From the NCBI GenBank assembly GCA_003169975.1, contig PNAA01000036.1, positions 62,001 to 126,000 of the forward strand: 64,000 bases of DNA, read 5' to 3'. The first letter of the stretch is position 1, and each line of letters begins with the position of its first letter. The notes below the pieces were generated by a model that saw only the letters and a program-made list of their open reading frames with translations, did not search any database and was not told where the DNA came from. A program made the translations under genes and the position numbers. Positions 11,815-45,724 of the stretch are shown piece after piece. The stretch comes from Spartobacteria bacterium (lineage in GTDB: Bacteria; Verrucomicrobiota; Verrucomicrobiia; Chthoniobacterales; UBA10450).

Positions 11815-11947
11815 GACAGCGCGCAGTTTAATGGGTGAACTCCGGGCGTTGGATCAAGCAGCCATCAAGCCGGCCGGAAGCAGGAAGGCCGGGAGATGGC
11901 GTTGTCCAGTCCCAGACGAAATCCTGACGTGTATTTGGAATGAAGGT

Positions 11948-13258: not shown

Positions 13259-13345
13259 AATTCAAAGAGGCAAGCAACGACCGGGAAAGTTTTCATGCCG
13301 TCGTAACTGGCGTTAGTTGGTTTTCGCCATCGCGGTCCTGGTTTG

Positions 13346-15296: not shown

Positions 15297-15444
15297 GGTT
15301 GGTTGCGGCGTAGCGGAAGAAAGGTCGGATGACGAGATTGGTCCGCGACGGCTCCAGTTGTCCTGCACCCGCGCGCCCGTATTTCCAGCTCGGAACTGGT
15401 TTGTTGGCTTGCGTTCGGCGGAAGCATTTCCCCCGCGTGGCGCT

Positions 15445-15886
15445 TCATTTTTGTTTGTCCATTGCGGCAAAAAGCTCCGTCCGTTCCTCCTCTCCGACGA
15501 TCCGGTCAATCATCGGATAGAGAATGTTCTCCTCCTTGTGATTGTGCGGCCCGAGCACGGCCAAGAGACCCGCCTCATCGTCGCCGGTGTCGTTCTGGCC
15601 CGCGGCAAACTTGCCGGCAATCGCTCCGAGAAAGCCGCGGATCTGCTCGTGTTCACAAGCGCATGACCTGGGTGGGGCCGCTGGTCTGGCCAGTCTTGTT
15701 CTCAAAAGCCGGAAAGAGGATTTCCTCCTCCCAGGCAATGTGCCGTTCCAGCCCGGCTTTGAACTCCTGAAATGCGCGCCCGGCGCTTTCGCGATCGGAG
15801 AGCTTGAGCGCCTGGAACTGTCGAAACAAATCATCCAACCGGTCGTGGTCCTGGCCGTAGTGATGGCTGATGCTTGGATGATTCAT
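15445..15886 (-). pseudogene. Hemerythrin (HHE) domain protein, frameshifted near 15660
   Basis: Reading from ATG 15886 gives NHPSISHHYGQDHDRLDDLF, FKAGLERHIAWEEEILFPAF and GPTQVM, then a stop. One frame over, HEQIRGFLGAIAGKF and LGPHNHKEENILYPMID continue the hemerythrin domain to 15445. The H..HD..HxxxE..H..HxxxE iron ligands are complete once both frames are joined, about 147 aa. A one-base change at about 15655-15662 breaks it. It is divergent from an Rrf2 regulator, so the intact form was probably NO- or oxygen-responsive. Confidence 0.85.
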
Positions 15887-15979
15887 GACGTTCTCCGTTT
15901 CTCTGTTCCGGGTCGGGGAAAATCCAACTGCCCTGAGGATAAACTTGCTAAATTGGATGTCAATGTCCACTTTAGCGTC

Positions 15980-16441
15980 ATGCAACTGATTTCCCGCACT
16001 TCGGAATACGCGCTGCGCGCCGTGATCTGGCTGGTGCAGGAACCGGCGCGCTCCCAGACCACGCGGCAGATCGCCACCGGCACGCGCACGCCGCCCGATT
16101 ACATCTCGAAGGTTCTCCAACTCCTCGCGAAGGCGGGTCTGGTGCGAAGTCAACGCGGCCTGGGTGGCGGCATTCAGCTCGCGAGCGATCCGATGCAAAT
16201 CACAGTGCTGGATGTGATCAATGCCGTGGACCCGCTGGAACGCATTCACACCTGCCCGCTGGGCCTGAAGGCGCACGGGACGAATCTTTGCCCGCTGCAT
16301 TGCGGCCTGAACGATGCAGTGGAGCAGATGGAAGCGACCTTTGCGAAAACAAACCTGGCCGACCTGCTCAACACCGACGCGCCCTCGATTCCGCTGGGCA
16401 TCAAATTGAAAGCCGCGCGCCGTTCGCCAGTTCCAGCCTGA
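15980..16441 (+). CDS. Rrf2-family transcriptional regulator
   Basis: 153 aa. MQLISRTSEYALRAVIWLVQ and the RGLGGGIQLA wing are the Rrf2 winged helix; a CPLGLKAHGTNLCPLHC segment (three Cys, spacing 11 and 3) can bind an iron-sulfur cluster. Rrf2 proteins sense NO, iron or redox state. It is divergent from the frameshifted hemerythrin with 93 bases between, where its operator should lie (a TGGA...TCCA dyad at about 15954-15969 is a candidate). A longer frame upstream has no Rrf2 similarity. Confidence 0.9.
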   Translation: MQLISRTSEYALRAVIWLVQEPARSQTTRQIATGTRTPPDYISKVLQLLAKAGLVRSQRGLGGGIQLASDPMQITVLDVINAVDPLERIHTCPLGLKAHGTNLCPLHCGLNDAVEQMEATFAKTNLADLLNTDAPSIPLGIKLKAARRSPVPA

Positions 16442-16503
16442 TCCCTTCACGATCGCCAAAGTTCATCTTGAAGCCCTTTTCTACCGGACTCCGGTCACGT
16501 TCA

Positions 16504-16529
16504 TTGCGGCAACGTGGCGCAGGCCGCTT
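16504..16529. repeat. 26-bp dispersed repeat (copy 2)
   Basis: TTGCGGCAACG...GCAGGCCGCTT, 23 of 26 bases as in the copy at 11366-11391. It lies between the Rrf2 gene and the 3' end of the nirK fusion gene in a 120-base gap. Copy 1 adjoins truncated nadA and the FTR1 gene, so both copies bracket a region with signs of rearrangement. Confidence 0.45.
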
Positions 16530-16561
16530 TGATCAGGCTTTACTTAAAACCTCTTGCCGTT

Positions 16562-18145
16562 TCATGGCGTGACCTGCAGCTCGGCGGCGGCACCGATCAT
16601 CATGTCGCGCATGCTGTGATCGACGATCGGATATTTGCCGGGGTGGGGTATAATCGCGTCGAAAACTACGCCTTCTCCGGGCGAGATAGGGTAGGTCGAG
16701 ACGCCAGTGAGCGCGTGGTTCGCGTCCCCATCGGGGTAAACCGCGGCAAATATTCCGCCGATGATGTGAAACGAAGTCGAGAGATTCGGGCCAGCGTCGA
16801 TAACATAAAGCCGAACGCGTTGGCCGACTTTCGCCGTAAGCGGATGATCGTTGTATTGAAATGCGACTCCGTTAAACACAACCTCGTCGGGAGTCCCGTT
16901 GAGCATCTTGTTGTAATCGCCGGTCATGAGTGTCCCTTCGGCTTGTGCCGTGTACCATTCGCTTTGCACGAGCACGTAGCTCACGTCGGCGGGTGGCAGC
17001 GGCTCTATTGGGTCGACAATGATGGCGCCATACATTCCATTGGCGATGTGCTGCAGCACCGGCGGCGTGCCGCAATGATAAATGAATGCGCCCGGCACTT
17101 GTGCCACAAACGAGAACTCAACTTTCTGGCCGGGATTGACGGAGCGGTAAGCGACGTTCGGCGCGACCTGGGCCGCATGAAGATCGATCGAGTGCTGCAT
17201 GGTGCCGTGGTTGACGAAGGTGATGTTTACTGTTTGCCCTTCCCGGACATGCAGAATCGGTCCGGGCACGGTGCCGTTGAAAGTCCAGGCCTGGTATTGC
17301 ACGCCACTCGCGATCTCAATCGTCACGTCGCTGGACTCGAGGCTGACGGAGACAGCGTTGCCGTTCCCGATGAGTGGCGGCAAAACCGGCGAGTAGGGAT
17401 GTGCGACCGGCGCGCCCGAGACGATGCTCAACGGCGAGACAGCGGCGGCGGCGTTTTGCGGAGTCGGTGGTAAGGAAGTCCTCGCGCTGCCTAGGGTCGC
17501 CAGGGCAAAGACAAGGATGACGATGATTCCGCCGATCACGCCCAGTTGCTGGTCCCAACCCAGGGCCGGAGGCGGTTGTGCAGAACGTTTCGGCGCCCAT
17601 TCGACGAGCGACGCCCACTTCGGAAAGCGACGGCCGAGGTAATAATCGAGACTGTAGGGATTGCGGCCGAGCAGATGCTCGAAAAGCGCGGCGGCGACGA
17701 AGACGAGCGCGTAGACCAGCGCCGGCCCGACATTGGTTGCCCCAGAGGTATAAGGCCCGCCGAATCCTTCCGCGGTGGACCAGATCAACAGACTGAACAA
17801 CGCGCCAGCGAAATAGGTAATGCGCCGCGCCAGACCAAGGAGCAGACCGATTGCGATCGCCGTTTCAATGAGTCGTGTCGTGGTAATGAAAAACCCAGCG
17901 TGCATCGTGACCAGACGCAGCCACATGTGAAACCACGCTTCCAGCCAGCGCGGCTGTGCGTTCGCGGCATTTTGCAGGTAGCCGACATAGTGCGCGGCAA
18001 ATCCGGGTTGCCATTTCAGCCAGGCATCGATCGCCATGAAAACGCCGAAGGCGGTGCGGAGGGCAGCCGCGGCGACGATCAGCCAGGCTGTCGATGCGGT
18101 CTCGGCGTTTGACTTTGGCTCTGTTTGATTTGGGACGGTTTCCAT
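16562..18145 (-). CDS. nirK: DoxX-like membrane domain fused to copper nitrite reductase (NirK-like)
   Basis: 527 aa. Residues 20-185 form a DoxX-type four-helix membrane module (FGVFMAIDAWLKWQPGFAAH); a fifth TM segment (about 205-222) leads to a two-cupredoxin multicopper oxidase. Copper ligands seen: HSIDLHA (type 1 and type 2 His), YHCGTPPVLQHIANGMYG (His, Cys, His, Met) and SFHIIGG (type 2 His of domain 2). This ligand order is NirK, which reduces nitrite to NO. It is the last gene of a six-gene operon starting with ric. The fusion would tether the enzyme to the membrane next to a possible quinol-linked module. A different multicopper oxidase activity cannot be excluded. Confidence 0.85.
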   Translation of the reverse strand: METVPNQTEPKSNAETASTAWLIVAAAALRTAFGVFMAIDAWLKWQPGFAAHYVGYLQNAANAQPRWLEAWFHMWLRLVTMHAGFFITTTRLIETAIAIGLLLGLARRITYFAGALFSLLIWSTAEGFGGPYTSGATNVGPALVYALVFVAAALFEHLLGRNPYSLDYYLGRRFPKWASLVEWAPKRSAQPPPALGWDQQLGVIGGIIVILVFALATLGSARTSLPPTPQNAAAAVSPLSIVSGAPVAHPYSPVLPPLIGNGNAVSVSLESSDVTIEIASGVQYQAWTFNGTVPGPILHVREGQTVNITFVNHGTMQHSIDLHAAQVAPNVAYRSVNPGQKVEFSFVAQVPGAFIYHCGTPPVLQHIANGMYGAIIVDPIEPLPPADVSYVLVQSEWYTAQAEGTLMTGDYNKMLNGTPDEVVFNGVAFQYNDHPLTAKVGQRVRLYVIDAGPNLSTSFHIIGGIFAAVYPDGDANHALTGVSTYPISPGEGVVFDAIIPHPGKYPIVDHSMRDMMIGAAAELQVTP

Positions 18146-33284: not shown

Positions 33285-36131
33285 ATGAACCTCACAGATT
33301 ACCACGCCAAGTACTTCGCCTACGAGCTGACTAAGCGCAGCCCTTCGGACAGCTTGGAGAAACTTGCAGGTGCCGTCGCCAGCGCTCAGGTCGATCTGAA
33401 TCCGCACCAAGTTGACGCAGCTCTTTTCGCGTTCCGCTCGCCACTTTCAAAAGGCGCGCTCCTTGCCGATGAAGTCGGGCTGGGCAAAACGATCGAAGCT
33501 GGCTTGGTGCTCTCGCAAAAATGGGCCGAGCGGAAGCGACGCATCCTGATCATTGTCCCGTCTAACTTACGCAAACAATGGCATCAGGAGCTCAGCGAGA
33601 AGTTCTTCCTGCCTTGCAGCATCCTGGAGACGAAGTCGTACAATTCCGCCGTCAAAGTCGGCAACTTCCGGCCCTTCCAAGCCGATAGCATCGTGATCTG
33701 CTCCTATCAGTTCGCACGCAATAAAGCCGCCGACGTTAGCAACACGTCGTGGGATCTGGTCGTGATCGACGAGGCGCACCGTCTTCGCAATGTTTATAAG
33801 CCCTCGAATGTCATCGCGAATGCACTCAAGTTGGCGCTCGCCGGCAAAGACAAGCTCCTGCTCACAGCGACTCCTCTCCAAAATTCCCTCCTCGAACTGT
33901 TCGGACTAATCAGCTTCGTCGATGAACACGTCTTCGGCGATTTGAAGAGCTTCCGGGAACAATTTGCCAACCTAAACCAAGAGCAGGTGTTCGACACGCT
34001 CAAGGCGCGTCTGAAGCCGCTCTGCCATCGCACGCTCCGCCGGCAGGTCACTTCTTACATCCCGTTCACCAAGCGCCTGCCTATGCTTGAGGAGTTCACG
34101 CCGGAGGAGGGTGAGGACCGGCTCTACAATCTCGTGTCCGATTATCTCCGGCGCGACAATCTCCAGGCGTTGCCAGCCAGCCAGCGCTCGCTCATGACGC
34201 TCGTGCTGCGCAAGCTCCTCGCGTCCTCCACGTTCGCCATCGCTGGCGCGCTCGAATCCATCTCCAATCGCCTTAAGAAGAAGCTCCAAAAGAAGGAGCC
34301 TACGGAATCGCTCGAAGAGGAACTTGATCAGGACTACGAAGGCCTCGACGAGACCGCCGAGGAATGGGAGGACGAAACGCCCGACGAACCTCTCTCCCAA
34401 ACCGACCGCGCCGCAATTGAAGCCGAAGTTGCCGATCTCGATCAATTCGCCACGCTCGCGACATCCATCACTCACAACTCCAAGGGCAAGTCGCTTCTGA
34501 AAGCACTGGCCGTCGCCTTCGCCAAGGCCCACGAACTCGGAGCCGCCGAAAAGGCCATTATTTTTACCGAATCCCGCAAGACCCAGAGCTACCTCCTGCG
34601 GCTGTTGGCTGACAGCAAGTTTGCCGAGGGGATCGTCCTTTTCAACGGCTCCAATACCGACGACCGCTCCAAGCTCATCTACTCCGCATGGCTTGAGAAA
34701 CACCAAGGCACAGACCGTGTCTCCGGTTCAAAAACGGCCGACATGCGCTCGGCGCTAGTTGATTACTTCCGCGAAGAAGGTCGCATCATGATCGCGACCG
34801 AGGCTGGAGCAGAGGGCATCAACCTTCAGTTTTGTTCGCTTGTTGTGAACTACGACCTGCCATGGAACCCACAGCGCATCGAACAACGGATTGGCCGTTG
34901 CCATCGTTATGGACAGAAGCACGACGTCGTTGTCGTGAACTTCCTCAATCGGAAAAACGCGGCGGATCAGCGCGTCTACCAACTTCTCTCTGAAAAGTTC
35001 AAGTTATTCGAAGGTGTCTTTGGCGCGAGTGACGAAGTGCTCGGTGCCATCGAAAGCGGCGTGGATTTCGAGAAGCGCATCAACGACATCTACCAGCGCT
35101 GCCGCAAGCACGAGGAAATCAAGGTCGCCTTCGACCAGCTCCAGCTCGAACTAAGTTTGGAAATCAACGAGTCAATGACCGCCACGCGGCGGAAGCTGCT
35201 GGAGAACTTCGATGATGAGGTGCGCGAGAAACTGAAGGTCAGCGACGAAGCGTCAAAGTCATACCTCAACCGCTACGAGCGCCTGCTCATCCAGCTTTCC
35301 CGCCATGAGCTTGATGATCACGCGGAGTTTTTTGATGAGTCCTCCTTTCGACTGAACACCTGTCCGTTCGCCGGCGACATTCCCCTCGGTCTCTACGAGC
35401 TCCCACGCCGAACGGGAGAAGCGCACCTTTACCGACTGAACCATCCCCTAGCGGAGGCCGTAATCGCACAGGCAAAGGCACACGATCTTCCGGTGCAGGA
35501 AGTTCGCTTCAACTATGGTACGCACGATGGACAAATCAGCAGCCTCGAACCTCTCGTCGGCAAGTCGGGTTGGCTGACGCTCTCAAGCTTCGCAGTCGAG
35601 TCCCTCGATCAAGCCGAGGACCATTTAATCTTCTCTGCGGTTACCGATGAAGGTACTCCGCTCGACGACGAAGCAGCTCCGCGACTTTTGACGCTTTCAG
35701 GGGACGCAATCGGTCCATGTTCTGACACCATTCCGGACCCGCTGGCAACCGCAACACAGCAACGCCAGGCTGCCATTCAACGCAGCATCTCGGAGCGCAA
35801 TGCTCGGTTTTTCGAGGCCGAGGCTGAAAAACTCGAAGGTTGGGCCGACGACCTCAAGCTAGGTCTTGAGCGCGAGATCAAGGAGATCGACCGCCAGATC
35901 AAGGAAGCCCGCCGCGCCGCTACGACTGCGCTCACCCTTGAAGAAAAGCTCGCCGGCCAGAAACAGATCAAAGCTCTCGAATCCCAGCGCAGTCAAAAAC
36001 GGCGGTCTCTGTTCGATGCACAAGACGATGTAGATCGGCAACGGGAGCAGTTGATCGTCCAAGTCGAAGGCAAGCTTGTTCAGAAGATCTCGCTTGAGCT
36101 ACTATTCACCGTTCGGTGGAAAGTTCATTAA
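33285..36131 (+). CDS. SNF2-family helicase, first gene of the defence island
   Basis: 948 aa. ADEVGLGKTIEAGL (Walker A, about 60), VIDEAHRLRN (about 163), LLTATPLQNS, then the helicase-C half ATEAGAEGINLQFCSLVVNY and RIEQRIGRCHRYGQ (about 540). The C-terminal third is alpha-helical with a coiled coil (about 845-930, EREIKEIDRQIKEARR). SNF2 ATPases of this type move along double-stranded DNA without unwinding it. It is similar in layout to the SNF2 proteins placed before type III-like mod/res pairs and to DISARM DrmD, but other DISARM genes are missing. A 58-aa gene follows after 8 bases. Confidence 0.9.
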   Translation: MNLTDYHAKYFAYELTKRSPSDSLEKLAGAVASAQVDLNPHQVDAALFAFRSPLSKGALLADEVGLGKTIEAGLVLSQKWAERKRRILIIVPSNLRKQWHQELSEKFFLPCSILETKSYNSAVKVGNFRPFQADSIVICSYQFARNKAADVSNTSWDLVVIDEAHRLRNVYKPSNVIANALKLALAGKDKLLLTATPLQNSLLELFGLISFVDEHVFGDLKSFREQFANLNQEQVFDTLKARLKPLCHRTLRRQVTSYIPFTKRLPMLEEFTPEEGEDRLYNLVSDYLRRDNLQALPASQRSLMTLVLRKLLASSTFAIAGALESISNRLKKKLQKKEPTESLEEELDQDYEGLDETAEEWEDETPDEPLSQTDRAAIEAEVADLDQFATLATSITHNSKGKSLLKALAVAFAKAHELGAAEKAIIFTESRKTQSYLLRLLADSKFAEGIVLFNGSNTDDRSKLIYSAWLEKHQGTDRVSGSKTADMRSALVDYFREEGRIMIATEAGAEGINLQFCSLVVNYDLPWNPQRIEQRIGRCHRYGQKHDVVVVNFLNRKNAADQRVYQLLSEKFKLFEGVFGASDEVLGAIESGVDFEKRINDIYQRCRKHEEIKVAFDQLQLELSLEINESMTATRRKLLENFDDEVREKLKVSDEASKSYLNRYERLLIQLSRHELDDHAEFFDESSFRLNTCPFAGDIPLGLYELPRRTGEAHLYRLNHPLAEAVIAQAKAHDLPVQEVRFNYGTHDGQISSLEPLVGKSGWLTLSSFAVESLDQAEDHLIFSAVTDEGTPLDDEAAPRLLTLSGDAIGPCSDTIPDPLATATQQRQAAIQRSISERNARFFEAEAEKLEGWADDLKLGLEREIKEIDRQIKEARRAATTALTLEEKLAGQKQIKALESQRSQKRRSLFDAQDDVDRQREQLIVQVEGKLVQKISLELLFTVRWKVH

Positions 36132-36139
36132 AGTCACCT

Positions 36140-36316
36140 ATGGAAACCCCGGCACAGAAACTTACATCCCGCATATTAAAACGCCTCACCGCGGCAAAAC
36201 TTCTACGAGAAGACGACGCTAAAGCTTTTGAACCAAAAGTTGCCGCCGGCACTGTCCGGCAAGAAGACTGGCGCTTGGCTTTGGAAAAGGCGTTGGACGT
36301 AAAAGGACCAGAATGA
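36140..36316 (+). CDS. 58-aa protein between SNF2 and the zinc-hook ATPase
   Basis: METPAQKLTSRILKRLTAAK and EDDAKAFEPKVAAGTVRQED, then a short helix. Its stop overlaps the ATG of the ATPase (ATGA), and its start is 8 bases after the SNF2 stop, so it is a genuine operon member. Compact, helical, charged; it could be an adaptor or a regulatory subunit of either neighbour. No family recognised. Confidence 0.65.
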   Translation: METPAQKLTSRILKRLTAAKLLREDDAKAFEPKVAAGTVRQEDWRLALEKALDVKGPE

Positions 36317-38622
36317 GCAGCGCACCTTTGCGAAAACTTACGGTTGCTTGTCTACGTGGTTGCACCGGGAGCTTTAGTTTGCCATTCGACAAGGGGAAGA
36401 AACTCACAGTCATTTATGGGGAAAATGGCAGCGGTAAATCGACCATTTGCGACGCTTTCGAGTTCATCGGAAAGGGAAAGATCGGGTCGCTAGAGAATCG
36501 AGGGCTTGGACGAACTGAGTCCTACTGGGCCTCGTTCGGAAAGAACCCGGGCGAGATTCTCGTCACGTTGGAAACAACTGTCGGCTCATGTAAGGGCAAG
36601 CTTGGAAAATCGGAGGTTTTGTGCGATCCACCGAATCAGCGGCCAAAGGTCGAAGTCCTGCGACGGGCGCGCATTCTCGATTTGGTCGCGGCTCAGGGAG
36701 CAGACAAATACAAGGCTCTAGAACGGTTTATAGATGTCGCGGGCCCCGAGACGGCTGAGGGCGCACTGCGTGAGTTGATCAAGAGCTTGAAGCAGAGTCA
36801 GAAAATTGCGCTGGCGCGTATCGCGGAGAATCAATCAGCAATCGAGCAATCATGGATGATCGATGGAGAGCCCCAGCCTGATGCTTTCTCCTGGGCTGAC
36901 GCCCAGTCGAAAGTAGATACAAATGTTTTCGATTCTGAGGCGAAGCAGATCGAATCACTTGCATCGGCTTTTGCGCGCGTAAAGGATGCTCTAGCTGGAG
37001 TTCCTCCGGCGACTACTGCTGTCGCGCAAGCCAAAGAAGGTGTTAAGAAGGCAAAGGAGGATTTGCAGCAAGCCGTCCAAGTAGCGACAGCAGACGCAAG
37101 CGATGTCGTGGCGATTCTTGAATCGGCGCAGTCTTATCTTCATACGCACGTAGAGTTGGTTGTTTGTCCCCTCTGTGAGAGTACCGAAAAGATCGATGAC
37201 TTGAGCGCGCGAGTAGAAGTTCGGCTGAATTCGTTCAAGTCGTTGCGTAAAGCGCAATCTGATTTGAAACCAAAGGAGGGGGTGCTCGCCGGATCCGAAG
37301 CGCGCCTCCAAGCTGCGAGTGACGCAGCGCTCGAACGCGCTGCAGATTTCGAAAAGGCTCGCTCAAGCGGCGCATGGCCAGTTGACATACCACTCCCGAC
37401 TCCGACACCCGGAAACACGGTTGGCGACCTCGCTGCTTGGTCAGCGGACGCGGAGCCTCTTGCAGCGCAGTGGAAAACAGCCCGGGATCGGCGGGCAGAC
37501 CGGAAGAGCTTCGTGGCGACCGTGAAATCGGCCCTAGCGACCTACCGCCAGAATTTCGACGAGCAGAAAGCACTCGACACGTTACTTCCGAAGCTCACAG
37601 AGGCATTGGAGATTGCCGAAACCGAACGACGCGCGTTCACGGACGAAATCCTGTCGGCAATTTCTGTGAACGTCGGTCGGCTTTATGAGGCGGTGCATCC
37701 TGGCGAAGGGCTTGAAAAAATCAGTTTGGGACTCGACCCGAAACGTCGGGCTTCGCTTGACATCGCGTCCAGTTTCGAAGGCAACCCGGGCGTGCCGCCG
37801 CAGGCTTATCTGAGCGAGTCACATCTCGACACACTCGGCCTTTGTATCTTTCTAGCTCTCGCAGAACTCGACGATCCAGGGGAGACACTATTAGTGCTCG
37901 ACGATGTTCTCGCCAGTGTAGATGAGCCTCATGTGGAACGTCTCATCGAAATGCTTTACGAAGAGGCGGCGAAATTCCGTCACTGCGTCATCACTACGCA
38001 TTATCGGCCATGGAAACAAAAGCTCCGCTGGGGGTGGCTGAAGAACGGCCAGTGTCAATTTATCGAGTTGTCGAAGTGGACAAACCAAGGTGGGATCACG
38101 CTCATCCGTAGCATTCCGGATGTCGAACGCCTTCAGACGCTGCTGGCCGAGACACCACCCGATCTCCAGCTCGTGTGTGCCAAAGCGGGGGTGATTCTCG
38201 AAGCCGCCTTGGATTTCCTGACGCAGCTTTACGAGTGCTCCGTTCCCCGGCGTCCCGGTGGATTGTATACCCTCGGCGACCTGCTCCCCTCCATTAACAG
38301 CAAGCTACGCAATGCCCTGCAGGTTGAAGTGCTGGTGAAAGATTCGGCGGGCGCGTCCAGCTACCAAGCCATAAGCTTGACACCCATAATCGAGGAACTG
38401 ATCCGCATCGCCCAGGCTCGGAACGTGTTTGGCTGCCATTTCACCGCGCTGTCCTTCGAGCTGCTGGACAGTGATGCGCTCGGCTTCGGAAAGAAGGTGT
38501 TGGACTTGATCGAGACGCTCGCCGATCCCGATGCCGGATGGCCACGGAACTGCAGATCTGGCAAATATTGGGCAAACTCTGGAGAAACACGGCGACTTCA
38601 TCCTCTACAGCCACCAAAATAA
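36313..38622 (+). CDS. SMC/Rad50-like ATPase with zinc hook and C-terminal extension
   Basis: 769 aa. Walker A YGENGSGKST (about 35), long helical arms, a Rad50-type hook VVCPLCESTEK (about 285), a signature-like YLSESHLDTLG (about 500), and Walker B LLVLDDVLASVDEPHV (about 527) with an H-loop in VITTHYRPW. Beyond the ATPase, about 160 residues (from VERLQTLLAETPPDLQLVCA) form a helical domain ending SGKYWANSGETRRLHPLQ. The tail is not part of Rad50 and may be an effector domain (HEPN-like toxins or nucleases occupy this place in RloC-like proteins), but catalytic residues are not clear. Acts probably as a DNA-end or phage sensor. Confidence 0.85.
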   Translation: MSSAPLRKLTVACLRGCTGSFSLPFDKGKKLTVIYGENGSGKSTICDAFEFIGKGKIGSLENRGLGRTESYWASFGKNPGEILVTLETTVGSCKGKLGKSEVLCDPPNQRPKVEVLRRARILDLVAAQGADKYKALERFIDVAGPETAEGALRELIKSLKQSQKIALARIAENQSAIEQSWMIDGEPQPDAFSWADAQSKVDTNVFDSEAKQIESLASAFARVKDALAGVPPATTAVAQAKEGVKKAKEDLQQAVQVATADASDVVAILESAQSYLHTHVELVVCPLCESTEKIDDLSARVEVRLNSFKSLRKAQSDLKPKEGVLAGSEARLQAASDAALERAADFEKARSSGAWPVDIPLPTPTPGNTVGDLAAWSADAEPLAAQWKTARDRRADRKSFVATVKSALATYRQNFDEQKALDTLLPKLTEALEIAETERRAFTDEILSAISVNVGRLYEAVHPGEGLEKISLGLDPKRRASLDIASSFEGNPGVPPQAYLSESHLDTLGLCIFLALAELDDPGETLLVLDDVLASVDEPHVERLIEMLYEEAAKFRHCVITTHYRPWKQKLRWGWLKNGQCQFIELSKWTNQGGITLIRSIPDVERLQTLLAETPPDLQLVCAKAGVILEAALDFLTQLYECSVPRRPGGLYTLGDLLPSINSKLRNALQVEVLVKDSAGASSYQAISLTPIIEELIRIAQARNVFGCHFTALSFELLDSDALGFGKKVLDLIETLADPDAGWPRNCRSGKYWANSGETRRLHPLQPPK

Positions 38623-38669
38623 AAGCCGGTTAGCTGCACCTAGCGACAAGAAATAGAACCTAACCGTCA

Positions 38670-39749
38670 ATGTCAGCACTGCCTGCTAACTTCGATTGGC
38701 GCCGCTCGCCGGGACATCTCTCCTATCTCGCATGTTTTCGGAATCCCAAGGAGGGCAAATTTGCTTGGGAACTTTTGACCAATGAATCCGGCGGTTCAGC
38801 CATCGAGCGGTTTCTGAGAGATGGCGCACTCGAGATTTGCGAGTTGCCAGAGCGCGTCGCTCATAAATTTAAAGTTTCCGAATTGAAGGACGTGCTGAGG
38901 CAGCACGATGAAAAGCCATCGGGTGACAAGACTAACTTGATTCAGGCCGTTCTGGCTGTTGCTGCCGAAGAAATGAAAGCCGCAACTCGTGGATTGCTAC
39001 TGTATAAGTGCACTAAGCTCGGCTGGAACGCCATTACTGAATTCGAACGGGCCAAAGGCGACGCACAGGCTCGTGCGCAAACCGAATCTCATGAGCAACT
39101 GTTAGCCGGGAACGCTAGAGCAGCATTCGCAATATTTGTTGCCTTCCAACGGAGCTTCGTTTGGTCTGAATACGGCGGGAGGTCCGACAAGGTGGAGGTT
39201 CTTGATTTCATCTTGGGCAGTGGCCCCGCAGCGGTCGGGCATCTTGAACTGCAGGATTTGCGAACCCTTCGTGCGGCTGCCGCAATGAAGGAACTATGGG
39301 GACAAACGGCTGACACAGTTTGGCTGCCGGAAAACTTCGTTACGCCAATAAATGACAACGCGCGAGCCGTGCGTCTTCTATTATCCCACGCAAAATCGCG
39401 TCAAACTCTTGCTTGGTTTGCAACTGACTGGAAAAATGTCAAGCTCACTTTCGATAAGAACGATATTGATTTATGTGAGCAGTGCGGGGCGCTCGACGGA
39501 AGCGTTCACCAAATCGACGAAGTTCCTGAAATACCGACCGAACACTGCACAAGCAGAAATGGGTGTGTTTGTCAGATCGATAACGCCGATCGTCGCGATT
39601 TTTCAGATGATTTGGTCTCGGACGACGAGGTTTTCACTGAGGATATCCCGATTCAACGACTGCGACAGCTAAAGTTGATGTTAGATGAGCACCTGATCGA
39701 GCAGGCTGAATACGATGTGAAGAAAAAGGAGATTCTCGAGCGCATGTAA
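38670..39749 (+). CDS. SAP-domain and SHOCT-like protein of the defence island
   Basis: 359 aa. Residues about 65-105 read FKVSELKDVLRQHDEKPSGD then KTNLIQAVLAV, a SAP DNA-binding helix-extended-helix. The middle (110-280) is unrecognised and includes WSEYGGRSDKVEVLDFILG. Residues about 320-358 (PIQRLRQLKLMLDEHLIEQA then EYDVKKKEILERM) match SHOCT oligomerisation motifs. CEQCGALDG and HCTSRNGCVCQ add a cysteine cluster (about 270-305). Codon use is more AT-rich than the neighbours. A DNA-binding accessory protein is the best guess. Confidence 0.65.
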   Translation: MSALPANFDWRRSPGHLSYLACFRNPKEGKFAWELLTNESGGSAIERFLRDGALEICELPERVAHKFKVSELKDVLRQHDEKPSGDKTNLIQAVLAVAAEEMKAATRGLLLYKCTKLGWNAITEFERAKGDAQARAQTESHEQLLAGNARAAFAIFVAFQRSFVWSEYGGRSDKVEVLDFILGSGPAAVGHLELQDLRTLRAAAAMKELWGQTADTVWLPENFVTPINDNARAVRLLLSHAKSRQTLAWFATDWKNVKLTFDKNDIDLCEQCGALDGSVHQIDEVPEIPTEHCTSRNGCVCQIDNADRRDFSDDLVSDDEVFTEDIPIQRLRQLKLMLDEHLIEQAEYDVKKKEILERM

Positions 39750-39766
39750 GCCTCTTTGCTGTCCTG

Positions 39767-41407
39767 ATGTCGAAAAAACAAAAACTCGAACTGACGTGGA
39801 TTGGGAAGGAGAACCGGCCCCGGCTGGAGCCGCGGATTTTGCTGGAAGACCCGGAGAAGTCGTATCACGCGGCGCACCGGGTGACGGATCACGACCTATT
39901 CGATAACCGCCTCATCTTTGGCGACAATTTGCTCGCCCTCAAAGCGCTCGAACAGGAGTTCACCGGCAAGATTAGGTGCATTTACATTGATCCGCCTTAC
40001 AACACCGGCAGCGCGTTCGAGCATTACGATGACGGAATCGAACACTCGCTTTGGCTTTCGCTGATGCGCGACCGGCTTGAAATCTTGAGGCATCTGATAG
40101 CTGATAACGGTTCAATTTGGGTGAGTGTGGACGACAATGAATCTCATTACCTGAAGGTGCTCATGGACGAGGTGTTTGGGCGCGCGAATTTCGTCGCCAA
40201 TGTCATCTGGCAAAAAAAATACGCCCCCGCAAATGACGCTATTTGGCTCAGTGACAGTCATGACCACATTCTGGTGTTCGCTAAGAATAAAACAACGTGG
40301 CGACCAAACCCGTTGGAACGTTCAAAGGATTCCGATAGCGCCTACAAGAATCCGGACAATGATCCGCGAGGTCCTTGGAAAGCGGGTGATTACGCATGTA
40401 ACAAGTCGGTGGACGCCCGACCGAATCTTTATTATGCGATTATCCATCCGCTGACCGGAAAGGAAGTATGGCCAAAACGGACAGCCGTTTGGCGATACGC
40501 TGAAGACACTCACAAAGTCCATGTGACCGAGAAAAGGATTTGGTGGGGCAAAGAGGGCAAGAATGGCGTTCCAGCATTCAAACGTTTCCGCACCGACATC
40601 GATAGTGGTGTTGTTCCGCAGACAATATGGGAATGGAATGAGGTTGGTCACACCCAAGACGGAAAGAAGGAGCAGATTGCCCTTAATCCAAATGACCCGT
40701 TTGGCACGCCAAAACCCGAACGCCTTTTGAACAGAATTGTCGAGATAGCTACCAACCCCGGCGACTGGGTGTTCGATTCGTTCGGCGGTTCGGGCACTAC
40801 GGGCGCGGTCGCGCACAAGATGGGCCGACGCTGGATCATGGTGGAGTTGGGCGAGCATTGTCACACGCACATCATTCCCCGGCTCAAGAAGGTGGTTGAT
40901 GGCGCGGACTCCGGTGGCATCACGGAAGCCGTGGGCTGGAAGGGCGGCGGAGGTTTCCGCTATTATCGGCTCGCGCCATCACTGCTGACTCAGGACAAGT
41001 CGGGCAATTGGGTCATTTCCAAGGAATACAACGCGCCCATGCTGGCGGAGGCAGTGTGCAAACTGGAAGGCTTCACCTATGCGCCGAGCGACACTGTCTA
41101 TTGGCAGCACGGTCATTCCACGGAGCGGGATTTTCTCTACGTCACCACGGCCAACCTGAACCACGACCAACTCCAGCAATTGAGCGACGAGATAGGATCG
41201 GAGCGCTCGCTGCTGGTGGTTTGTTCTGCCTTTCGCGGACGCAAGGAAGGCTACCCGAACCTCACGGTGAAGAAGATTCCCAAGGCCGTCCTGGCCCGTT
41301 GCGAGTGGGGGCACGATGATTACAGCCTCAAGGTGGAGAACCTGCCGAAAGCGCCGCCGAAGCCGGGACAACAGGAGCTGGGTTTATCCGCAGATTCACG
41401 CAGATGA
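39767..41407 (+). CDS. Type III-like site-specific DNA methyltransferase (Mod)
   Basis: 546 aa. IDPPYNTGSAFEHYDDG (catalytic DPPY, about 75) precedes VFDSFGGSGTTGAVAHKMG (SAM motif I, about 338): the beta-class order of N6-adenine Mod subunits. Between them (about 140-320) lies the target-recognition region with NVIWQKKYAP. The C-terminal 150 residues are unusually long. The last residues, LSADSRR, and the TGA stop are encoded by the left inverted repeat of the GxxExxY cassette, so the original C-terminus was probably different. Methylates the host sites cut by the Res partner. Confidence 0.9.
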   Translation: MSKKQKLELTWIGKENRPRLEPRILLEDPEKSYHAAHRVTDHDLFDNRLIFGDNLLALKALEQEFTGKIRCIYIDPPYNTGSAFEHYDDGIEHSLWLSLMRDRLEILRHLIADNGSIWVSVDDNESHYLKVLMDEVFGRANFVANVIWQKKYAPANDAIWLSDSHDHILVFAKNKTTWRPNPLERSKDSDSAYKNPDNDPRGPWKAGDYACNKSVDARPNLYYAIIHPLTGKEVWPKRTAVWRYAEDTHKVHVTEKRIWWGKEGKNGVPAFKRFRTDIDSGVVPQTIWEWNEVGHTQDGKKEQIALNPNDPFGTPKPERLLNRIVEIATNPGDWVFDSFGGSGTTGAVAHKMGRRWIMVELGEHCHTHIIPRLKKVVDGADSGGITEAVGWKGGGGFRYYRLAPSLLTQDKSGNWVISKEYNAPMLAEAVCKLEGFTYAPSDTVYWQHGHSTERDFLYVTTANLNHDQLQQLSDEIGSERSLLVVCSAFRGRKEGYPNLTVKKIPKAVLARCEWGHDDYSLKVENLPKAPPKPGQQELGLSADSRR

Positions 41408-41417
41408 ACGCAGATTC
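41388..41417 (+). repeat. Left 30-bp inverted repeat of the GxxExxY cassette
   Basis: CCGCAGATTCACGCAGATGA then ACGCAGATTC, made of near 10-bp iterations of CGCAGATTCA. It matches the complement of 41792-41821 at 28 of 30 bases. It contains the mod stop (41405-41407) and the GxxExxY start (41404). Confidence 0.85.
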
Positions 41418-41838
41418 AAGAAGTAGTGACCCGGAAACTTTTGCCATCATTGGCGCGGCCATGGAGGTGCATCGAGAGCTGCGGAACGGCTTTTTGGAAG
41501 CGGTGTATCAGGATGCGCTTGCTGTAGAATTCGCGTTGCGCGGCGTTTCTTTCGAGCGCGAGAAGGTGCTTCAAGTTCACTACAAAGGAGGCGTGCTTCC
41601 GAGTTTCTACAAGGCAGATTTCGTGTGCTTCGGAAGCGTACTGGTCGAGTGCAAGGCGCTTCATGCGATGGGCGGAGTGGAAGAAGCGCAGGTCCTGAAT
41701 TATCTCCGCATCACCGGATTACCGCGAGCGGTCCTGCTCAACTTCGGAACCCGTTCGCTCGAATACAAGCGCCTCATCTTCAGCCCAGATAGAATCTGCG
41801 TAAATCTGCGTGAATCTGCGGAGGACATCCGGTTATGA
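41404..41838 (+). CDS. GxxExxY protein inside an inverted-repeat cassette
   Basis: 144 aa. AAMEVHRELRNGFLEAVYQD holds the GxxExxY signature; YKADFVCFGSVLVECKALHA and EEAQVLNYLRITG give a PD-(D/E)xK-like D...ExK core. The family is widespread, of unknown function, and often bounded by iterated CTGCG repeats. Both ends lie in such repeats: ATG in the left one, and RICVNLRESAEDI in the right one. It overlaps mod and the DUF1016 gene by ATGA at each side, so insertion kept the coupling. Could be a small homing-type or solitary nuclease. Confidence 0.9.
   Translation: MNADSRSSDPETFAIIGAAMEVHRELRNGFLEAVYQDALAVEFALRGVSFEREKVLQVHYKGGVLPSFYKADFVCFGSVLVECKALHAMGGVEEAQVLNYLRITGLPRAVLLNFGTRSLEYKRLIFSPDRICVNLRESAEDIRL
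41792..41821 (-). repeat. Right 30-bp inverted repeat of the GxxExxY cassette
   Basis: GAATCTGCGTAAATCTGCGT then GAATCTGCGG, three CTGCG iterations. The complement equals the left repeat except for two bases. It encodes the last residues of GxxExxY and precedes the DUF1016 start by 14 bases. Confidence 0.85.
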
Positions 41839-43043
41839 ACCGCCACGTCAATGTGCCGAAAGAAAAGCCAGGCCAGCTTTACAATCGCATCCGGGAGATT
41901 CTCGAATCGGCGCGCACGGGAGTAGCCCGCACCGTCAATACCACCCAAGTAGTCGCGAATTGGCTAATCGGTCGGGAAATTGTCGAGGAAGAACAGCGCG
42001 GAAAAAGCCGTGCAGGTTATGGTGATGCCCTCATCCGTGACCTCGCCGAAAAACTGACGCAAGATTTCGGACGGGGTTATTCGAAAGATAACCTATTCTG
42101 GTTTCGGCGATTCTATGGCAATTACCCGCGCCTCCTCGCCAAAACAAAATTTGACGCAGCGGGTCAAATTTCCACCCTCACCGGTATTGTTGACGCAGCG
42201 GGTCAAATTTCCGAGACACCGGCTCGGATTTCCGCCCACGGCGGAATTCTCCACGCACCGCGTGGAGAATCTGATGAAGACGGTGAAAGGTCTGTGCGTG
42301 CAGCTTGGGAACCGGGGCAATTGAACCCGAATCTGTCCTGGACTCACTACCGCACCCTCCTCCGTTCGGACGACCCCTCTGCCCGCGCCTTCTACGAAAT
42401 CGAAGCCATCAGGAACAACTGGTCGGCCAGGGAATTAGAACGCCAGATCAACAGCCTGCTCTATGAGCGTCTGGCTAAAAGCCGGGACAAAAGCGGGTTG
42501 ATGCGGCTGGCTACCAAAGGCCACGAAATTCAGAGGCCGGAGGATGTGTTCAAGGACCCGGTGGTGATCGAGTTCCTCGGCCTGCCAGAATCACATCGCC
42601 TGGTCGAGTCGAATCTGGAAGAGGCGCTGATCACGAATCTCCAGCTCTTCCTCCTGGAGCTGGGCAAAGGTTTCGCCTTCGTCTCGCGGCAGGAGCGAAT
42701 CACTCTCGAAGGCGATCACTTCTATATCGACCTGGTGTTCTACCACACGGTCCTGAAATGCCATGTGTTGATTGACTTGAAGGTGGGCAAGCTCACGCAC
42801 GGAGACCTCGGGCAGCTCCAACTTTACGTGAATTACTTTGATCAGGAACGGCGGACGGCAGGAGATAACCCCACACTCGGCCTGATCCTCTGTACGGACA
42901 AAAACGACACGGTTGTGAAATATACGCTCGGGCCCGACCAGGGGCGGAAGATTTTCGCCAGTCGTTACAAGTTACATTTGCCCACGGAAGCCGAGTTAAA
43001 GGCGGAACTCCGGCGGGAACTCAAGGAACTGAAAACTCCGTGA
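41835..43043 (+). CDS. DUF1016/YhcG-type PD-(D/E)xK nuclease with palindromic insert
   Basis: 402 aa. The N-terminal domain has NTTQVVANWLIGREIVEEEQ and LTQDFGRGYSKDNLFWFRRF; the C-terminal nuclease has VRLS-type core seen as GDHFYIDLVFYHTVLKCHVL then IDLKVGKL (D...DxK). Between them residues about 105-150 are an insert with the repeated DAAGQIS and hairpin-forming DNA (42147-42270). Usual DUF1016 proteins are about 350 aa, so the insert explains the extra length. ATGA overlaps tie it to GxxExxY and to res. Role in the island unclear; possibly a second effector. Confidence 0.88.
   Translation: MNRHVNVPKEKPGQLYNRIREILESARTGVARTVNTTQVVANWLIGREIVEEEQRGKSRAGYGDALIRDLAEKLTQDFGRGYSKDNLFWFRRFYGNYPRLLAKTKFDAAGQISTLTGIVDAAGQISETPARISAHGGILHAPRGESDEDGERSVRAAWEPGQLNPNLSWTHYRTLLRSDDPSARAFYEIEAIRNNWSARELERQINSLLYERLAKSRDKSGLMRLATKGHEIQRPEDVFKDPVVIEFLGLPESHRLVESNLEEALITNLQLFLLELGKGFAFVSRQERITLEGDHFYIDLVFYHTVLKCHVLIDLKVGKLTHGDLGQLQLYVNYFDQERRTAGDNPTLGLILCTDKNDTVVKYTLGPDQGRKIFASRYKLHLPTEAELKAELRRELKELKTP
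42147..42270. repeat. In-frame palindromic insert in the DUF1016 gene
   Basis: Three hairpins in 124 bases: AAATTTGAC/GTCAAATTT with a 7-base loop (42147-42171), TTGAC/GTCAA with the identical loop GCAGCGG (42190-42206), and ATTCTCCACGC/GCGTGGAGAAT with a 3-base loop (42246-42270). All stay in the reading frame, giving the duplicated peptide DAAGQIS. The layout is like that of protein-coding palindromic elements in Rickettsia; here the source is unknown. Confidence 0.75.
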
Positions 43044-45724
43044 ATCGACACGTCAACGCCATTGCCGGCCGCTTGAGCTTGCGCCCGCCGCAGCGTCATT
43101 CATTGGAGATTCTCGACCGCATTACGGAGATCGTTCCCCCGCGCAAGGCAGCGGATTTAGCTACGGCGCTGGAGATCATCCGTAGCGAGTACCCAACGGT
43201 AACAGATTTCGAGCGCGAATTTCCATCCCTTTGCTTCGCGCTGGCAACCGGCGTGGGCAAGACGCGGCTGATGGGAGCGTTTATCAGCTACCTGCACCTG
43301 GCGCACGGCATCAACAACTTCTTCGTCATGGCTCCGAACCTGACGATTTACAACAAGCTGATCACCGACTTCACCCCAAACACCCCCAAGTATGTATTCA
43401 AGGGCATCGCGGAATTTGCCACGGACGCGCCAGAAATCATCACGGGCGACAACTACGAAGCGAAGGCAGGCACCCTTTTCGACCAATTCCTGCGATGCAA
43501 GGTGAACATCTTCAACATCTCGAAGATCAACTCGGAGGTGCGCGGCGGAAAATCGCCACGGATCAAGCGGCTCTCCGAGTACATCGGCGAAAGCTATTTC
43601 GAGTATTTGGCGGCGCTGCCCGACCTCGTGTTGATCATGGACGAATCGCACCGTTACCGCGCGAGCGCGGGCGTTCGGGCGATCAATGAATTGAAGCCAG
43701 TGGTGGGCCTGGAACTGACGGCGACGCCATTTGTGGAAGGGCCAAAGGGAGCAATAGCGTTCAAGAACGTTATCTACGATTACCCGCTAGCCAAAGCCAT
43801 GCAGGATGGCTTCGTGAAAGAGCCGGCGGTGGCAACGCAGAAGAACTTCGATCCGAGCCGTTTTTCCGCCGCAGAGATCGAGAAGATCAAGCTGGAGGAC
43901 GGTGTTCGCCTACACGAAGACGTGAAGGTGCGGCTCGAAACCTATGCGCGGGAAACTGAGCAAAAGATCGTGAAGCCCTTTGTCCTCGTGATCGCGCGGG
44001 ATACAACGCACGCGGGGGATTTGCTAAAGCTCATCCAGTCCGATGAGTTCTTCGAGGGGCGTTACAAGGAGAAGGTCATCCAGGTGGATTCCAGCAAAAC
44101 TGGCGCGGAGGAAGAGGAGATGATCAATCGCCTGCTCAAAGTGGAGCAGACCGAAGAGCCGACCGAAATCGTGATCCACGTCAACATGCTGAAGGAGGGC
44201 TGGGACGTAACGAACCTCTACACGATCATTCCCCTCCGCGCGGCCAATGCGCGAACTCTTATCGAGCAGTCGATCGGGCGGGGATTGCGCCTGCCCTACG
44301 GTAAGCGCACCGGCGTCAGCGCGGTGGATCGGCTGACTATTGTCGCCCATGACAAGTTTCAGGAGATTATCGACGAGGCCAATCGGCCGGACTCTCAAAT
44401 CCGGCTGGAGAAGATCATTCTCGAACCCGCAGGACAGCATCAGAAGCTCGCCACAGTCATCTCACAATCAGGAGTGTTAGCTCAGATCGGCGGACAATCA
44501 TTGGAATCCAGTTCGACCACGATCACGCAATCCGGCGCTTCGGCGGTTAAGCCTGTTTTCGCGACAGAAGCAGAACAGAAAGTCGCAAAGGTGGCTTACG
44601 ACGTCATTAACCGCTACGAGCTGCTTCCGAGTTCGAGTCAGTTACTGAAGAAAGGGATTCAGGAAGAGATCACCGCGAGGGTAAAGGAAGAGATAGCTCC
44701 TCTACAGGGCGAATTGGCCGGTGTGATGGCGCAGGTCAACGTGGCCGCCGTCGTAGCCAAAACGACGGAATTGGTCGTTCAGCAGACCATCGACATCCCG
44801 CGAATCCTGGTTGTACCGAAGGGCGAGGTGACAAGCGGGTTCCATTCGTTCACGTTGGATGCAAGTTCTATCCACTACCAGCCAGTCGAGCGCGACATCC
44901 TGATTCAACATTTGCGCACGCATCAGCAAGAGACGCTGACCGCCTTGGGGAGCGCACAGACGGAGTTGCGCATCGAGGACTACCTTGTCCGGGCGCTGAT
45001 TGATTTCGACGACATCTCCTATGATAACCACGCCGATCTGCTCTACGAGCTGTCCGGGCAACTGGTGAAACACCTGCGCGGCTATCTGAAGGACGAGGGC
45101 GACGTGCAGAACGTCCTCCAGTATTACCAGCGGCAGCTCGCGGAGTTCATTCACTCACAGATGCAGGCGCATCACTGGGAAAAGGCGTCGGGCTACGATG
45201 TCGTGGTGAGTAAAGGCCTCACCGCGCTCAAGTCGCTGGCCTTTACCGCGCCGGCAGACGAGGCGATTCACAATTTTCGGCATCCCGTGGCGGACAAGAC
45301 GAAGATCGCCCAGATGATCTTTGGCGGATTCAGCCGCTGCCTCTATCCGGTGCAGAAATTCCAATCGGACACCGAACGTGTTATGTCAGTAATTCTGGAT
45401 CGCGAGGCAGCGAAGTGGTTCAAGCCTGGCCGCAGCCAGTTCCAGATTTTCTACAAGTGGGGCGCTGATCAACGCGAGTATCAGCCCGATTTTGTCGCGG
45501 AGACGGCCGATGCCATTTACATGCTCGAACCGAAAGCTCGGAAAGATATGGAAGACGGTGAAGTGATCGCCAAAAAAGACTCTGCGGCCCGCTGGTGCCA
45601 GCGCGCCACGGACCACGCCGCCCAGAATGGAGGCAAGCCGTGGAAGTATCTGCTCATCCCGCACGACGCGATCGCCGAGAACATGAGCATCAAGGGATTG
45701 GCGGCACAGTTCAGTGTGAAGTGA
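43040..45724 (+). CDS. Type III-like restriction endonuclease subunit (Res)
   Basis: 894 aa. ATGVGKTRLMGAFI (Walker A, about 72), LVLIMDESHRYRA (DEAD-type box, about 200), LELTATP, then ILIHVNMLKEGWDVTNLYTI-like motif and QSIGRGLRLPYG (motif VI, about 412). The C-terminal nuclease has QPDFVAETADAIYMLEPKAR (PD...ExK, about 815-832), so cleavage residues are intact. Partner of mod at 39767, though separated from it by two other genes rather than adjacent. ATGA overlap with DUF1016. Confidence 0.9.
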   Translation: MNRHVNAIAGRLSLRPPQRHSLEILDRITEIVPPRKAADLATALEIIRSEYPTVTDFEREFPSLCFALATGVGKTRLMGAFISYLHLAHGINNFFVMAPNLTIYNKLITDFTPNTPKYVFKGIAEFATDAPEIITGDNYEAKAGTLFDQFLRCKVNIFNISKINSEVRGGKSPRIKRLSEYIGESYFEYLAALPDLVLIMDESHRYRASAGVRAINELKPVVGLELTATPFVEGPKGAIAFKNVIYDYPLAKAMQDGFVKEPAVATQKNFDPSRFSAAEIEKIKLEDGVRLHEDVKVRLETYARETEQKIVKPFVLVIARDTTHAGDLLKLIQSDEFFEGRYKEKVIQVDSSKTGAEEEEMINRLLKVEQTEEPTEIVIHVNMLKEGWDVTNLYTIIPLRAANARTLIEQSIGRGLRLPYGKRTGVSAVDRLTIVAHDKFQEIIDEANRPDSQIRLEKIILEPAGQHQKLATVISQSGVLAQIGGQSLESSSTTITQSGASAVKPVFATEAEQKVAKVAYDVINRYELLPSSSQLLKKGIQEEITARVKEEIAPLQGELAGVMAQVNVAAVVAKTTELVVQQTIDIPRILVVPKGEVTSGFHSFTLDASSIHYQPVERDILIQHLRTHQQETLTALGSAQTELRIEDYLVRALIDFDDISYDNHADLLYELSGQLVKHLRGYLKDEGDVQNVLQYYQRQLAEFIHSQMQAHHWEKASGYDVVVSKGLTALKSLAFTAPADEAIHNFRHPVADKTKIAQMIFGGFSRCLYPVQKFQSDTERVMSVILDREAAKWFKPGRSQFQIFYKWGADQREYQPDFVAETADAIYMLEPKARKDMEDGEVIAKKDSAARWCQRATDHAAQNGGKPWKYLLIPHDAIAENMSIKGLAAQFSVK

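What the first reader, a model, noticed from the sequence alone, without database searches (positions are those of the whole stretch)
33285..45724. Composite defence island: SNF2 helicase, zinc-hook ATPase, SAP-SHOCT protein, Mod, DUF1016 nuclease, Res
Eight genes in one direction, with ATGA overlaps at four junctions (58-aa protein/ATPase, mod/GxxExxY, GxxExxY/DUF1016, DUF1016/res). SNF2 plus type III-like mod/res is a known neighbourhood in which a DUF4391 protein often sits in between. Here that place is taken by a 58-aa protein, an SMC-like ATPase with Rad50-type zinc hook and extra C-terminal domain, and a SAP/SHOCT protein. I know no named system with this exact set. The absence of the TCGTTAGGC motif over the whole block supports transfer as a unit.
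Basis: partly seen in the sequence, partly recalled or inferred. Interest (0 to 1): 0.85.

Follow-up and report, generated by a model that had tools for sequence, protein, structure and literature searches.

The report
Restriction island with swappable effector slot
This stretch is a bacterial DNA-restriction system of five co-conserved genes, found in at least seven bacterial phyla, that carries an undescribed two-gene "small protein plus zinc-hook ATPase" cassette in a slot where other bacteria carry other suspected kill-switch genes; it matters because it suggests a general layout in which a restriction enzyme is paired with an exchangeable backup weapon.

Summary
The eight genes are real and co-directional (33285-45724). 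They are not a chance composite, but not one eight-gene system either. Five (SNF2, 58-aa protein, zinc-hook ATPase, Mod, Res) recur in that order in many phyla: 26 of 31 ATPase relatives have SNF2 upstream, and 17 show the full SNF2-ATPase-Mod-Res order. SAP-SHOCT, GxxExxY and DUF1016 are optional cargo; SAP-SHOCT occurs in none of the 31.

SNF2-Mod-Res is a type III-like restriction core with a variable slot between SNF2 and Mod. A same-family relative keeps SNF2 at 90% DNA identity but has different slot genes and a swapped Mod recognition domain. A second SNF2-type III island in the same genome holds an RloC-family ATPase (a known kind of tRNA-cutting nuclease) there.

The 58-aa protein and ATPase form an undescribed pair: Rad50-like body, CPxC hook, and a C-terminal domain of unrecognised fold with invariant RNxxG(A/C)H, suggestive of a HEPN RNase. 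Best reading: a backup effector guarding a restriction system.

GxxExxY lies inside a 31-bp inverted repeat, and DUF1016 starts with a fossil copy of the Res start, so both look inserted.

The parts
33285..36131 (+). SNF2-family helicase (DrmD/BrxHII-like); core gene
   Evidence: SNF2-rel_dom 2.6e-36; DrmD_b 696 bits, below its 950-bit cut-off; DEVGLGKT and DEAH invariant in 19 loci
36077..39772 (+). variable slot: segment with no DNA homology to same-family relative L081, which has DUF2130 plus AAA_15 ATPase here
   Evidence: homology stops at 36076 (89.8% identity) and resumes at 39773 (86.5%)
36140..36316 (+). 58-aa partner protein of the ATPase (signature ..EDW..)
   Evidence: profile finds it at the ATPase 5' end in 29 of 35 loci; no Pfam, PADLOC or NCBIfam hit
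36313..38622 (+). zinc-hook Rad50/SMC-like ATPase, 769 aa
   Evidence: AlphaFold pLDDT 82.6; Foldseek to Smc, Rad50 and Lamassu LmuB structures, E about 1e-10 to 1e-12
37165..37176 (+). zinc hook CPLC (residues 285-288)
   Evidence: C285, P286, C288 invariant in A4
38104..38619 (+). C-terminal domain of the ATPase, putative RNase (HEPN-like by motif only)
   Evidence: R, N, G, H invariant in 24 sequences; AlphaFold pLDDT 87; no PDB or BFVD fold match
38419..38439 (+). RNVFGCH motif (residues 703-709)
38670..39749 (+). SAP-domain protein (SHOCT weak); optional cargo
   Evidence: 0 of 31 ATPase loci; 57% identical relative after DUF2130 plus OLD-like ATPase
39767..41407 (+). Mod, type III-like N6-adenine methyltransferase
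   Evidence: MTase_III 732 bits; DPPY at residue 75, FGGSG at 339
40159..40772 (+). Mod target-recognition region, exchanged between relatives
   Evidence: no DNA match to L081 here; conservation 0.21-0.41 at residues 151-330
41387..41417 (+). left arm of 31-bp inverted repeat of the GxxExxY element; supplies the Mod stop and GxxExxY start
   Evidence: (94% complementary)
41404..41838 (+). GxxExxY protein (PDDEXK_3)
   Evidence: TIGR04256 131.6 bits
41792..41822 (+). right arm of the inverted repeat
   Evidence: only these two arms match the pattern in the whole genome
41835..41853 (+). fossil copy of a Res start (ATGAACCGCCACGTCAATG) used as the DUF1016 start
   Evidence: matches the Res start of L017; repeated at 43041-43056
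41835..43043 (+). DUF1016/YhcG nuclease (PDC-S02); optional cargo
43040..45724 (+). Res: SF2 helicase plus PD..ExK nuclease
   Evidence: REase_III 735 bits; YQPDF...EPK conserved

Best explanation
A type III-like restriction-modification core (SNF2, Mod, Res) marks self DNA by N6-adenine methylation and cuts unmarked DNA. In a fixed slot between SNF2 and Mod it carries an exchangeable backup effector cassette; here the 58-aa protein, the zinc-hook ATPase and probably SAP-SHOCT. The ATPase is held inactive by the 58-aa protein and/or the intact restriction complex. When DNA ends accumulate or an anti-restriction protein disables the complex, it engages DNA through its Rad50-like head and its C-terminal RNxxGxH domain cuts RNA, stopping growth of the infected cell. 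Shown: gene order and conservation, slot exchange, catalytic and zinc-hook motifs, a second island with an RloC-family ATPase in the same slot. Inferred: methylation and cutting (from family), silencing, trigger, RNase activity, abortive outcome.
For: 26 of 31 loci carrying an ATPase relative have SNF2 upstream on the same strand, 19 Mod and 17 Res downstream, in several phyla. The small gene accompanies the ATPase. Slot content differs between loci: DUF2130 plus AAA_15, AAA_13 or TrlF ATPases, AAA plus DUF4276, AIPR, Abi, DUF6119, or nothing. Same-family DNA comparison shows a cassette swap and a Mod recognition-domain swap. Second island in the same genome: SNF2, full-length AAA_13 (6e-143) with CEFC hook, Mod, RmuC, Res. 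RloC is a zinc-hook ABC-ATPase tRNase, sometimes type I/III-linked (PMC2610378); PrrC is a restriction-silenced backup (PMC3710099). R, N, G, H invariant in 24 C-terminal domains. Core genes co-vary (SNF2-Res rho 0.76-0.80), the ATPase less so (0.16-0.43).
Against: The C-terminal domain matches no HEPN fold in PDB or BFVD and no Pfam family. The RloC Arg-x3-Glu...His triad is absent. Two divergent alphaproteobacterial relatives keep the His but lose the Arg. The pair also exists without restriction genes (Hymenobacter, Fibrella, Bradyrhizobium plasmids), so restriction coupling is not obligatory. No functional data.
Confidence: 0.5

Rival explanations
1. The ATPase and 58-aa protein are working parts of the restriction complex: an SMC/Lamassu-like DNA sensor that loads on foreign DNA and brings in Res, with no separate toxin. 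The C-terminal domain is a DNA- or partner-binding module.
For: Foldseek places the body with Smc, Rad50, Lamassu LmuB and JetC; all 21 members hit LmuB profiles; a minimal five-gene operon with nothing else recurs (L014, L020, L029, L032, L040).
Against: SNF2-Mod-Res exists without it (L078, L080) and with unrelated cargo in its place; the pair also exists alone on plasmids; an invariant RNxxGxH suggests catalysis.
Confidence: 0.27
2. Ordinary defence island: independent genes accumulated next to a type III-like system with no functional link.
For: SAP-SHOCT, GxxExxY and DUF1016 are scattered; GxxExxY is bounded by inverted repeats; slot content is diverse.
Against: Fixed order and strand of SNF2-small-ATPase-Mod-Res across phyla, with cassettes replaced at conserved boundaries. 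True for the three optional genes, not for the core.
Confidence: 0.15
3. The pair is a toxin-antitoxin addiction module stabilising the island: the 58-aa protein is an antitoxin, the ATPase-RNase its toxin, unrelated to phage sensing.
For: Small overlapping upstream gene; occurrence on plasmids next to recombinases; VapC occupies the same slot in Deinococcus L076.
Against: A Rad50-like DNA-sensing body with zinc hook is unusual for a simple toxin; other slot occupants belong to families implicated in phage defence.
Confidence: 0.08

Closest known systems
RloC (AAA_13, zinc-hook anticodon nuclease)
   Same: Rad50-like ABC ATPase with CxxC hook and C-terminal domain with a conserved Arg/His motif; about 770 aa; can sit next to R-M genes; an RloC-family protein holds the same slot in the second island of this genome
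   Different: Only a P-loop match to AAA_13 (1.3e-6 vs 6e-143); RloC triad Arg-x3-Glu-x36-52-His replaced by RNxxGxH; a dedicated 58-aa partner; sequence similarity limited to the ATPase core
Type III R-M (EcoP15I-like Mod/Res)
   Same: Mod with DPPY, central recognition domain, FxGxG; Res with SF2 helicase and PD..ExK; PADLOC MTase_III 732 and REase_III 735 bits
   Different: Regular SNF2 neighbour; Pfam RE_endonuc and EcoP15I_C domains not found in the window proteins though found in the Mod/Res of L100 and the Res of L148
Lamassu (LmuABC)
   Same: LmuB-like SMC ATPase body (PADLOC LmuB 4.7e-18; Foldseek 9hqu 3e-11) beside a small protein
   Different: No LmuA effector or LmuC match; extra C-terminal domain fused to the ATPase; tied to SNF2-Mod-Res
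DISARM class 1 / BREX type 3 / BR (Hma) systems
   Same: SNF2 helicase plus adenine methyltransferase; BREX/BR use auxiliary backup effectors (PMC12839542)
   Different: SNF2 below the DrmD cut-off (696 vs 950 bits); no DrmA, DrmB, PglZ, BrxC or DUF499 ATPase here
SNF2-DUF4391-Mod-Res type III neighbourhood
   Same: Same order with another gene between SNF2 and Mod (L152-L154)
   Different: Distant SNF2 (60-76 bits), different Mod/Res lineage

Membership tests
Type III R-M | Mod with beta-class motif order (DPPY, TRD, FxGxG) | tested here: met
   and MTase_III 732 bits
Type III R-M | Res with SF2 helicase and C-terminal PD-(D/E)xK nuclease | tested here: met
   ResIII 5e-21, REase_III 735 bits, PDF...ExK conserved; Pfam RE_endonuc itself not detected
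Type III R-M | Cleavage needing two head-to-head unmethylated asymmetric sites | not testable with these tools
   needs methylome and biochemistry
RloC | Full-length AAA_13/RloC family match | tested here: not met
   AAA_13 1.3e-6, P-loop only, below cut-off
RloC | Zinc-hook CxxC inside the ATPase | tested here: met
   C285-C288 invariant
RloC | Arg-x3-Glu-x36-52-His triad (definition from PMC2610378) | tested here: not met
   invariant residues of A3 are L, G, E, R, N, G, H, P without that spacing
HEPN RNase | Rx4-6H motif | tested here: met
   RNxxG(A/C)H in 24 of 24
HEPN RNase | HEPN fold by structure or profile comparison | tested here: inconclusive
   model pLDDT 87 but no Foldseek hit below 0.001; no Pfam hit
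Lamassu | LmuA effector and LmuC beside LmuB | tested here: not met
   no LmuA/LmuC hit in the rows shown for P0001-P0008
DISARM | DrmD above cut-off, with DrmA and DrmB | tested here: not met
   696 vs 950 bits; no DrmA or DrmB gene in the block

The most novel reading that the evidence does not exclude
The small (EDW) protein plus zinc-hook ATPase is a new class of DNA-sensing backup effector whose C-terminal domain is an RNase of a fold not yet in the PDB, and SNF2-Mod-Res is a general restriction core with a plug-in effector slot in which ATPase-linked effectors (this pair, RloC, OLD-like, TrlF, AAA-DUF4276) replace each other.
Probability: 0.35. Interest if true: 0.8.

Novelty: new variant of a known kind. 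Interest (0 to 1): 0.62.

Why it matters
It turns a vague "defence island" into a testable layout: one conserved restriction core, one fixed slot, many interchangeable effectors. If the slot genes are silenced by the core and released when restriction fails, this would generalise the PrrC case to a large set of unstudied genes, and the slot becomes a place to look for new abortive effectors. The same-family pair (window against L081) and the two islands in one genome offer natural cassette swaps for experiments.

Tried and rejected
Eight-gene system: rejected, SAP-SHOCT, GxxExxY and DUF1016 are not conserved with the rest. RloC membership: rejected on motif and profile. HEPN fold confirmation by Foldseek against PDB and BFVD and by profile against PDB: no match. 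Relatives of SAP-SHOCT in viral contigs: none; in plasmids: two weak, in unrelated contexts. Relatives of the ATPase within the window's family and order: only the window itself among 98 genomes, so the cassette is not vertically inherited there. TCGTTAGGC gap as evidence of transfer: weak. One Pfam call failed on coordinates, one repeat call on strand. Literature: no paper in the open-licence library combines zinc hook, type III restriction and SNF2; DUF4391 and GxxExxY are barely mentioned. Subscription literature and preprints were largely not searchable, so absence of a name is not proof of novelty.

Full report
WHAT IS THERE. Eight + strand genes fill 33285-45724. Pfam, PADLOC and NCBIfam give SNF2, no family for the 58-aa protein, an SMC/AAA_21-type ATPase, a SAP protein, a type III-like Mod, GxxExxY (PDDEXK_3), DUF1016/YhcG and a type III-like Res. 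Junctions: three ATGA and one GTGA overlap. The block is 55.3% G+C against 58.9% and 61.5% on the two sides; neighbours are ordinary chromosomal genes (chloride channel, cyclase, FMN reductase, FtsX permease, M1 peptidase). There is no tRNA in the window.

WHICH GENES BELONG TOGETHER. An alignment of the ATPase with five Bacteroidota plasmid homologues (A1) was used to scan 84,980 species genomes. In the 31 loci L010-L040, SNF2 lies upstream on the same strand in 26, Mod downstream in 19 and Res in 17 (several of the shortfalls are contig ends). The record titles cover Pseudomonadota, Verrucomicrobiota, Nitrospirota, Acidobacteriota, Armatimonadota, Elusimicrobiota and Chloroflexota. L014, L020, L029, L032 and L040 carry nothing but SNF2, small, ATPase, Mod, Res (in L020 the small gene is found only by single-sequence search). 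The set was seeded by the ATPase, so these numbers speak for the ATPase's company, not for how often SNF2-Mod-Res carries it. In a Res-seeded sample of 388 genomes of the phylum, 20 have Res, and among those with enough flank no other carries this ATPase: it is a minority occupant.

THE SMALL PROTEIN. A profile grown from the window protein finds a 50-70 residue homologue ending at or overlapping the ATPase start in 29 of 35 loci; two divergent alphaproteobacterial loci have an unaligned small ORF in the same place. Signature..LA..I...L...GLL....KLA.G....EDWRL..E.A. The pair also occurs without restriction genes on Hymenobacter, Fibrella and Bradyrhizobium plasmids, often beside recombinases, so it is a portable two-gene module.

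THE SLOT. Res-seeded plasmid and genome loci show SNF2 and Mod with nothing between them (L078, L080), or AIPR plus VapC (L076), Abi (L074), AAA plus DUF4276 (L077, L087), DUF2130 plus AAA_15 (L081), DUF2130 plus AAA_13 (L089), Schlafen plus DUF2130 plus a TrlF-family ATPase (L096), DUF6119 (L094), a peptidase/HTH protein (L093) or unknown proteins (L079, L098). SNF2 is frequent but not universal beside this Res (absent in L083, L092, L095). The cleanest case is L081 from the same family: DNA identity with the window is 90% through SNF2 up to 36076 (55 bases before its stop), nil over 36077-39772, 87% in the first part of Mod, nil in 40159-40772 (the recognition domain between DPPY and FGGSG), 80% in the rest of Mod, nil over GxxExxY and DUF1016, and 74% in Res. 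So the slot and the recognition domain have both been exchanged against a constant core. Pairwise distances agree: SNF2-Res rho 0.76-0.80, Mod-Res 0.59-0.70, ATPase with the others 0.16-0.43.

A SECOND ISLAND IN THE SAME GENOME. G000 contig 58, bases 1-16000 (L148), about 83 kb away, has an integrase, SNF2 (56% identical), a full-length AAA_13 protein (6e-143, 765 aa, CEFC hook), Mod, RmuC and a Res with RE_endonuc. AAA_13 is the family I associate with RloC/PrrC (own knowledge); RloC is a zinc-hook ABC ATPase with tRNA anticodon nuclease activity that is occasionally linked to type I or III R-M loci (PMC2610378), and PrrC is silenced by its linked R-M enzyme and released by a phage anti-restriction peptide (PMC3710099). 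A viral contig, L100, has SNF2-small-ATPase joined to a Mod and Res with canonical type III domains. The same position therefore holds an RloC-family ATPase in one island and the new ATPase in the other.

THE ATPASE. Walker A, hook CPxC, signature S(E/D/Q)SHLDT, Walker B and H-loop are conserved. AlphaFold gives a Rad50/SMC body with long coiled coils (pLDDT 82.6); Foldseek matches are Smc, Rad50, Lamassu LmuB and JetC at E about 1e-9 to 1e-12. The C-terminal 172 residues fold confidently alone (pLDDT 87), with R, N, G, H of RNxxG(A/C)H invariant in 24 sequences, but match nothing by fold or profile. HEPN is therefore a motif-level inference; the RloC triad is absent; two distant alphaproteobacterial relatives keep only the His.

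HOW THE OPTIONAL GENES CAME IN. Res proteins begin MNRHVNAIAGRLSLR in many loci; DUF1016 of the window begins ATGAACCGCCACGTCAATG, matching the Res start of L017, while the real Res start follows at 43040. L083 and L085 show similar duplicated Res starts before their inserts. In L081, L011, L032 and L018 Mod runs straight into Res. GxxExxY sits inside a 31-bp inverted repeat (94% complementary) whose left arm supplies the Mod stop codon and the GxxExxY start codon, so that ATGA overlap is a by-product of insertion rather than evolved coupling. In 30 GxxExxY genes of the class, 23 have flanking inverted repeats scoring 16 or more (20 when the ends are taken from the family hit instead), against 1 of 250 control ORFs; each arm is about three copies of an 8-11 nt unit that differs between elements but matches between arms.

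MECHANISM. Shown: conserved five-gene order, slot exchange, recognition-domain exchange, conserved catalytic and hook motifs, RloC-family occupant of the same slot. From family knowledge: Mod methylates adenine, Res cuts unmodified DNA. Inferred: the ATPase is a guarded second line that senses DNA ends or failure of restriction and kills or stalls the cell, probably through RNA cleavage by its C-terminal domain; the 58-aa protein is its regulator; SAP-SHOCT is a DNA-binding helper that travels with ATPase cargo. I give 0.5 to the backup-effector reading as a whole and less (about 0.4) to RNA as its target.

VERDICT.

Noticed in passing
window 41387-41822; L092 3898-4404; L085 3720-4295; L114-L143: GxxExxY (TIGR04256) genes are bounded by inverted repeats, each arm about three head-to-tail copies of an 8-11 nt unit; the unit differs between elements but the two arms match each other. 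23 of 30 loci score 16 or more against 1 of 250 control ORFs. Looks like an undescribed mobile mini-element.
   Followed up: partly
L155-L184: Four-helix-bundle genes (TIGR02436) show the same arrangement with mostly 7-nt units (15 of 30 score 16 or more), suggesting two related kinds of repeat-bounded single-gene elements.
   Followed up: partly
G000 contig 58, 1-16000 (L148): Second SNF2-type III island in the same genome, beside an integrase, with an RloC-family ATPase in the slot and RmuC between Mod and Res.
   Followed up: yes
window 42147-42212: DUF1016 carries an insert between its two domains with a 23-nt direct repeat (TTGACGCAGCGGGTCAAATTTCC twice, 39 nt apart), encoding DAAGQIS twice.
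   Followed up: no
L010 13973-15184: At the same point of the Mod 3' end as the window's GxxExxY, L010 has an insert that reads like a RhuM-type protein (by eye), starting with AACGCAAGGA-type repeats.
   Followed up: partly
L100 (viral contig) 6440-16676: SNF2-small-ATPase joined to canonical type III Mod/Res (RE_endonuc) on a contig called viral.
   Followed up: partly
L113 6018-10391: Closest SAP-SHOCT relative (57%) follows DUF2130 and an OLD-like ATPase with TOPRIM, without SNF2/Mod/Res.
   Followed up: partly
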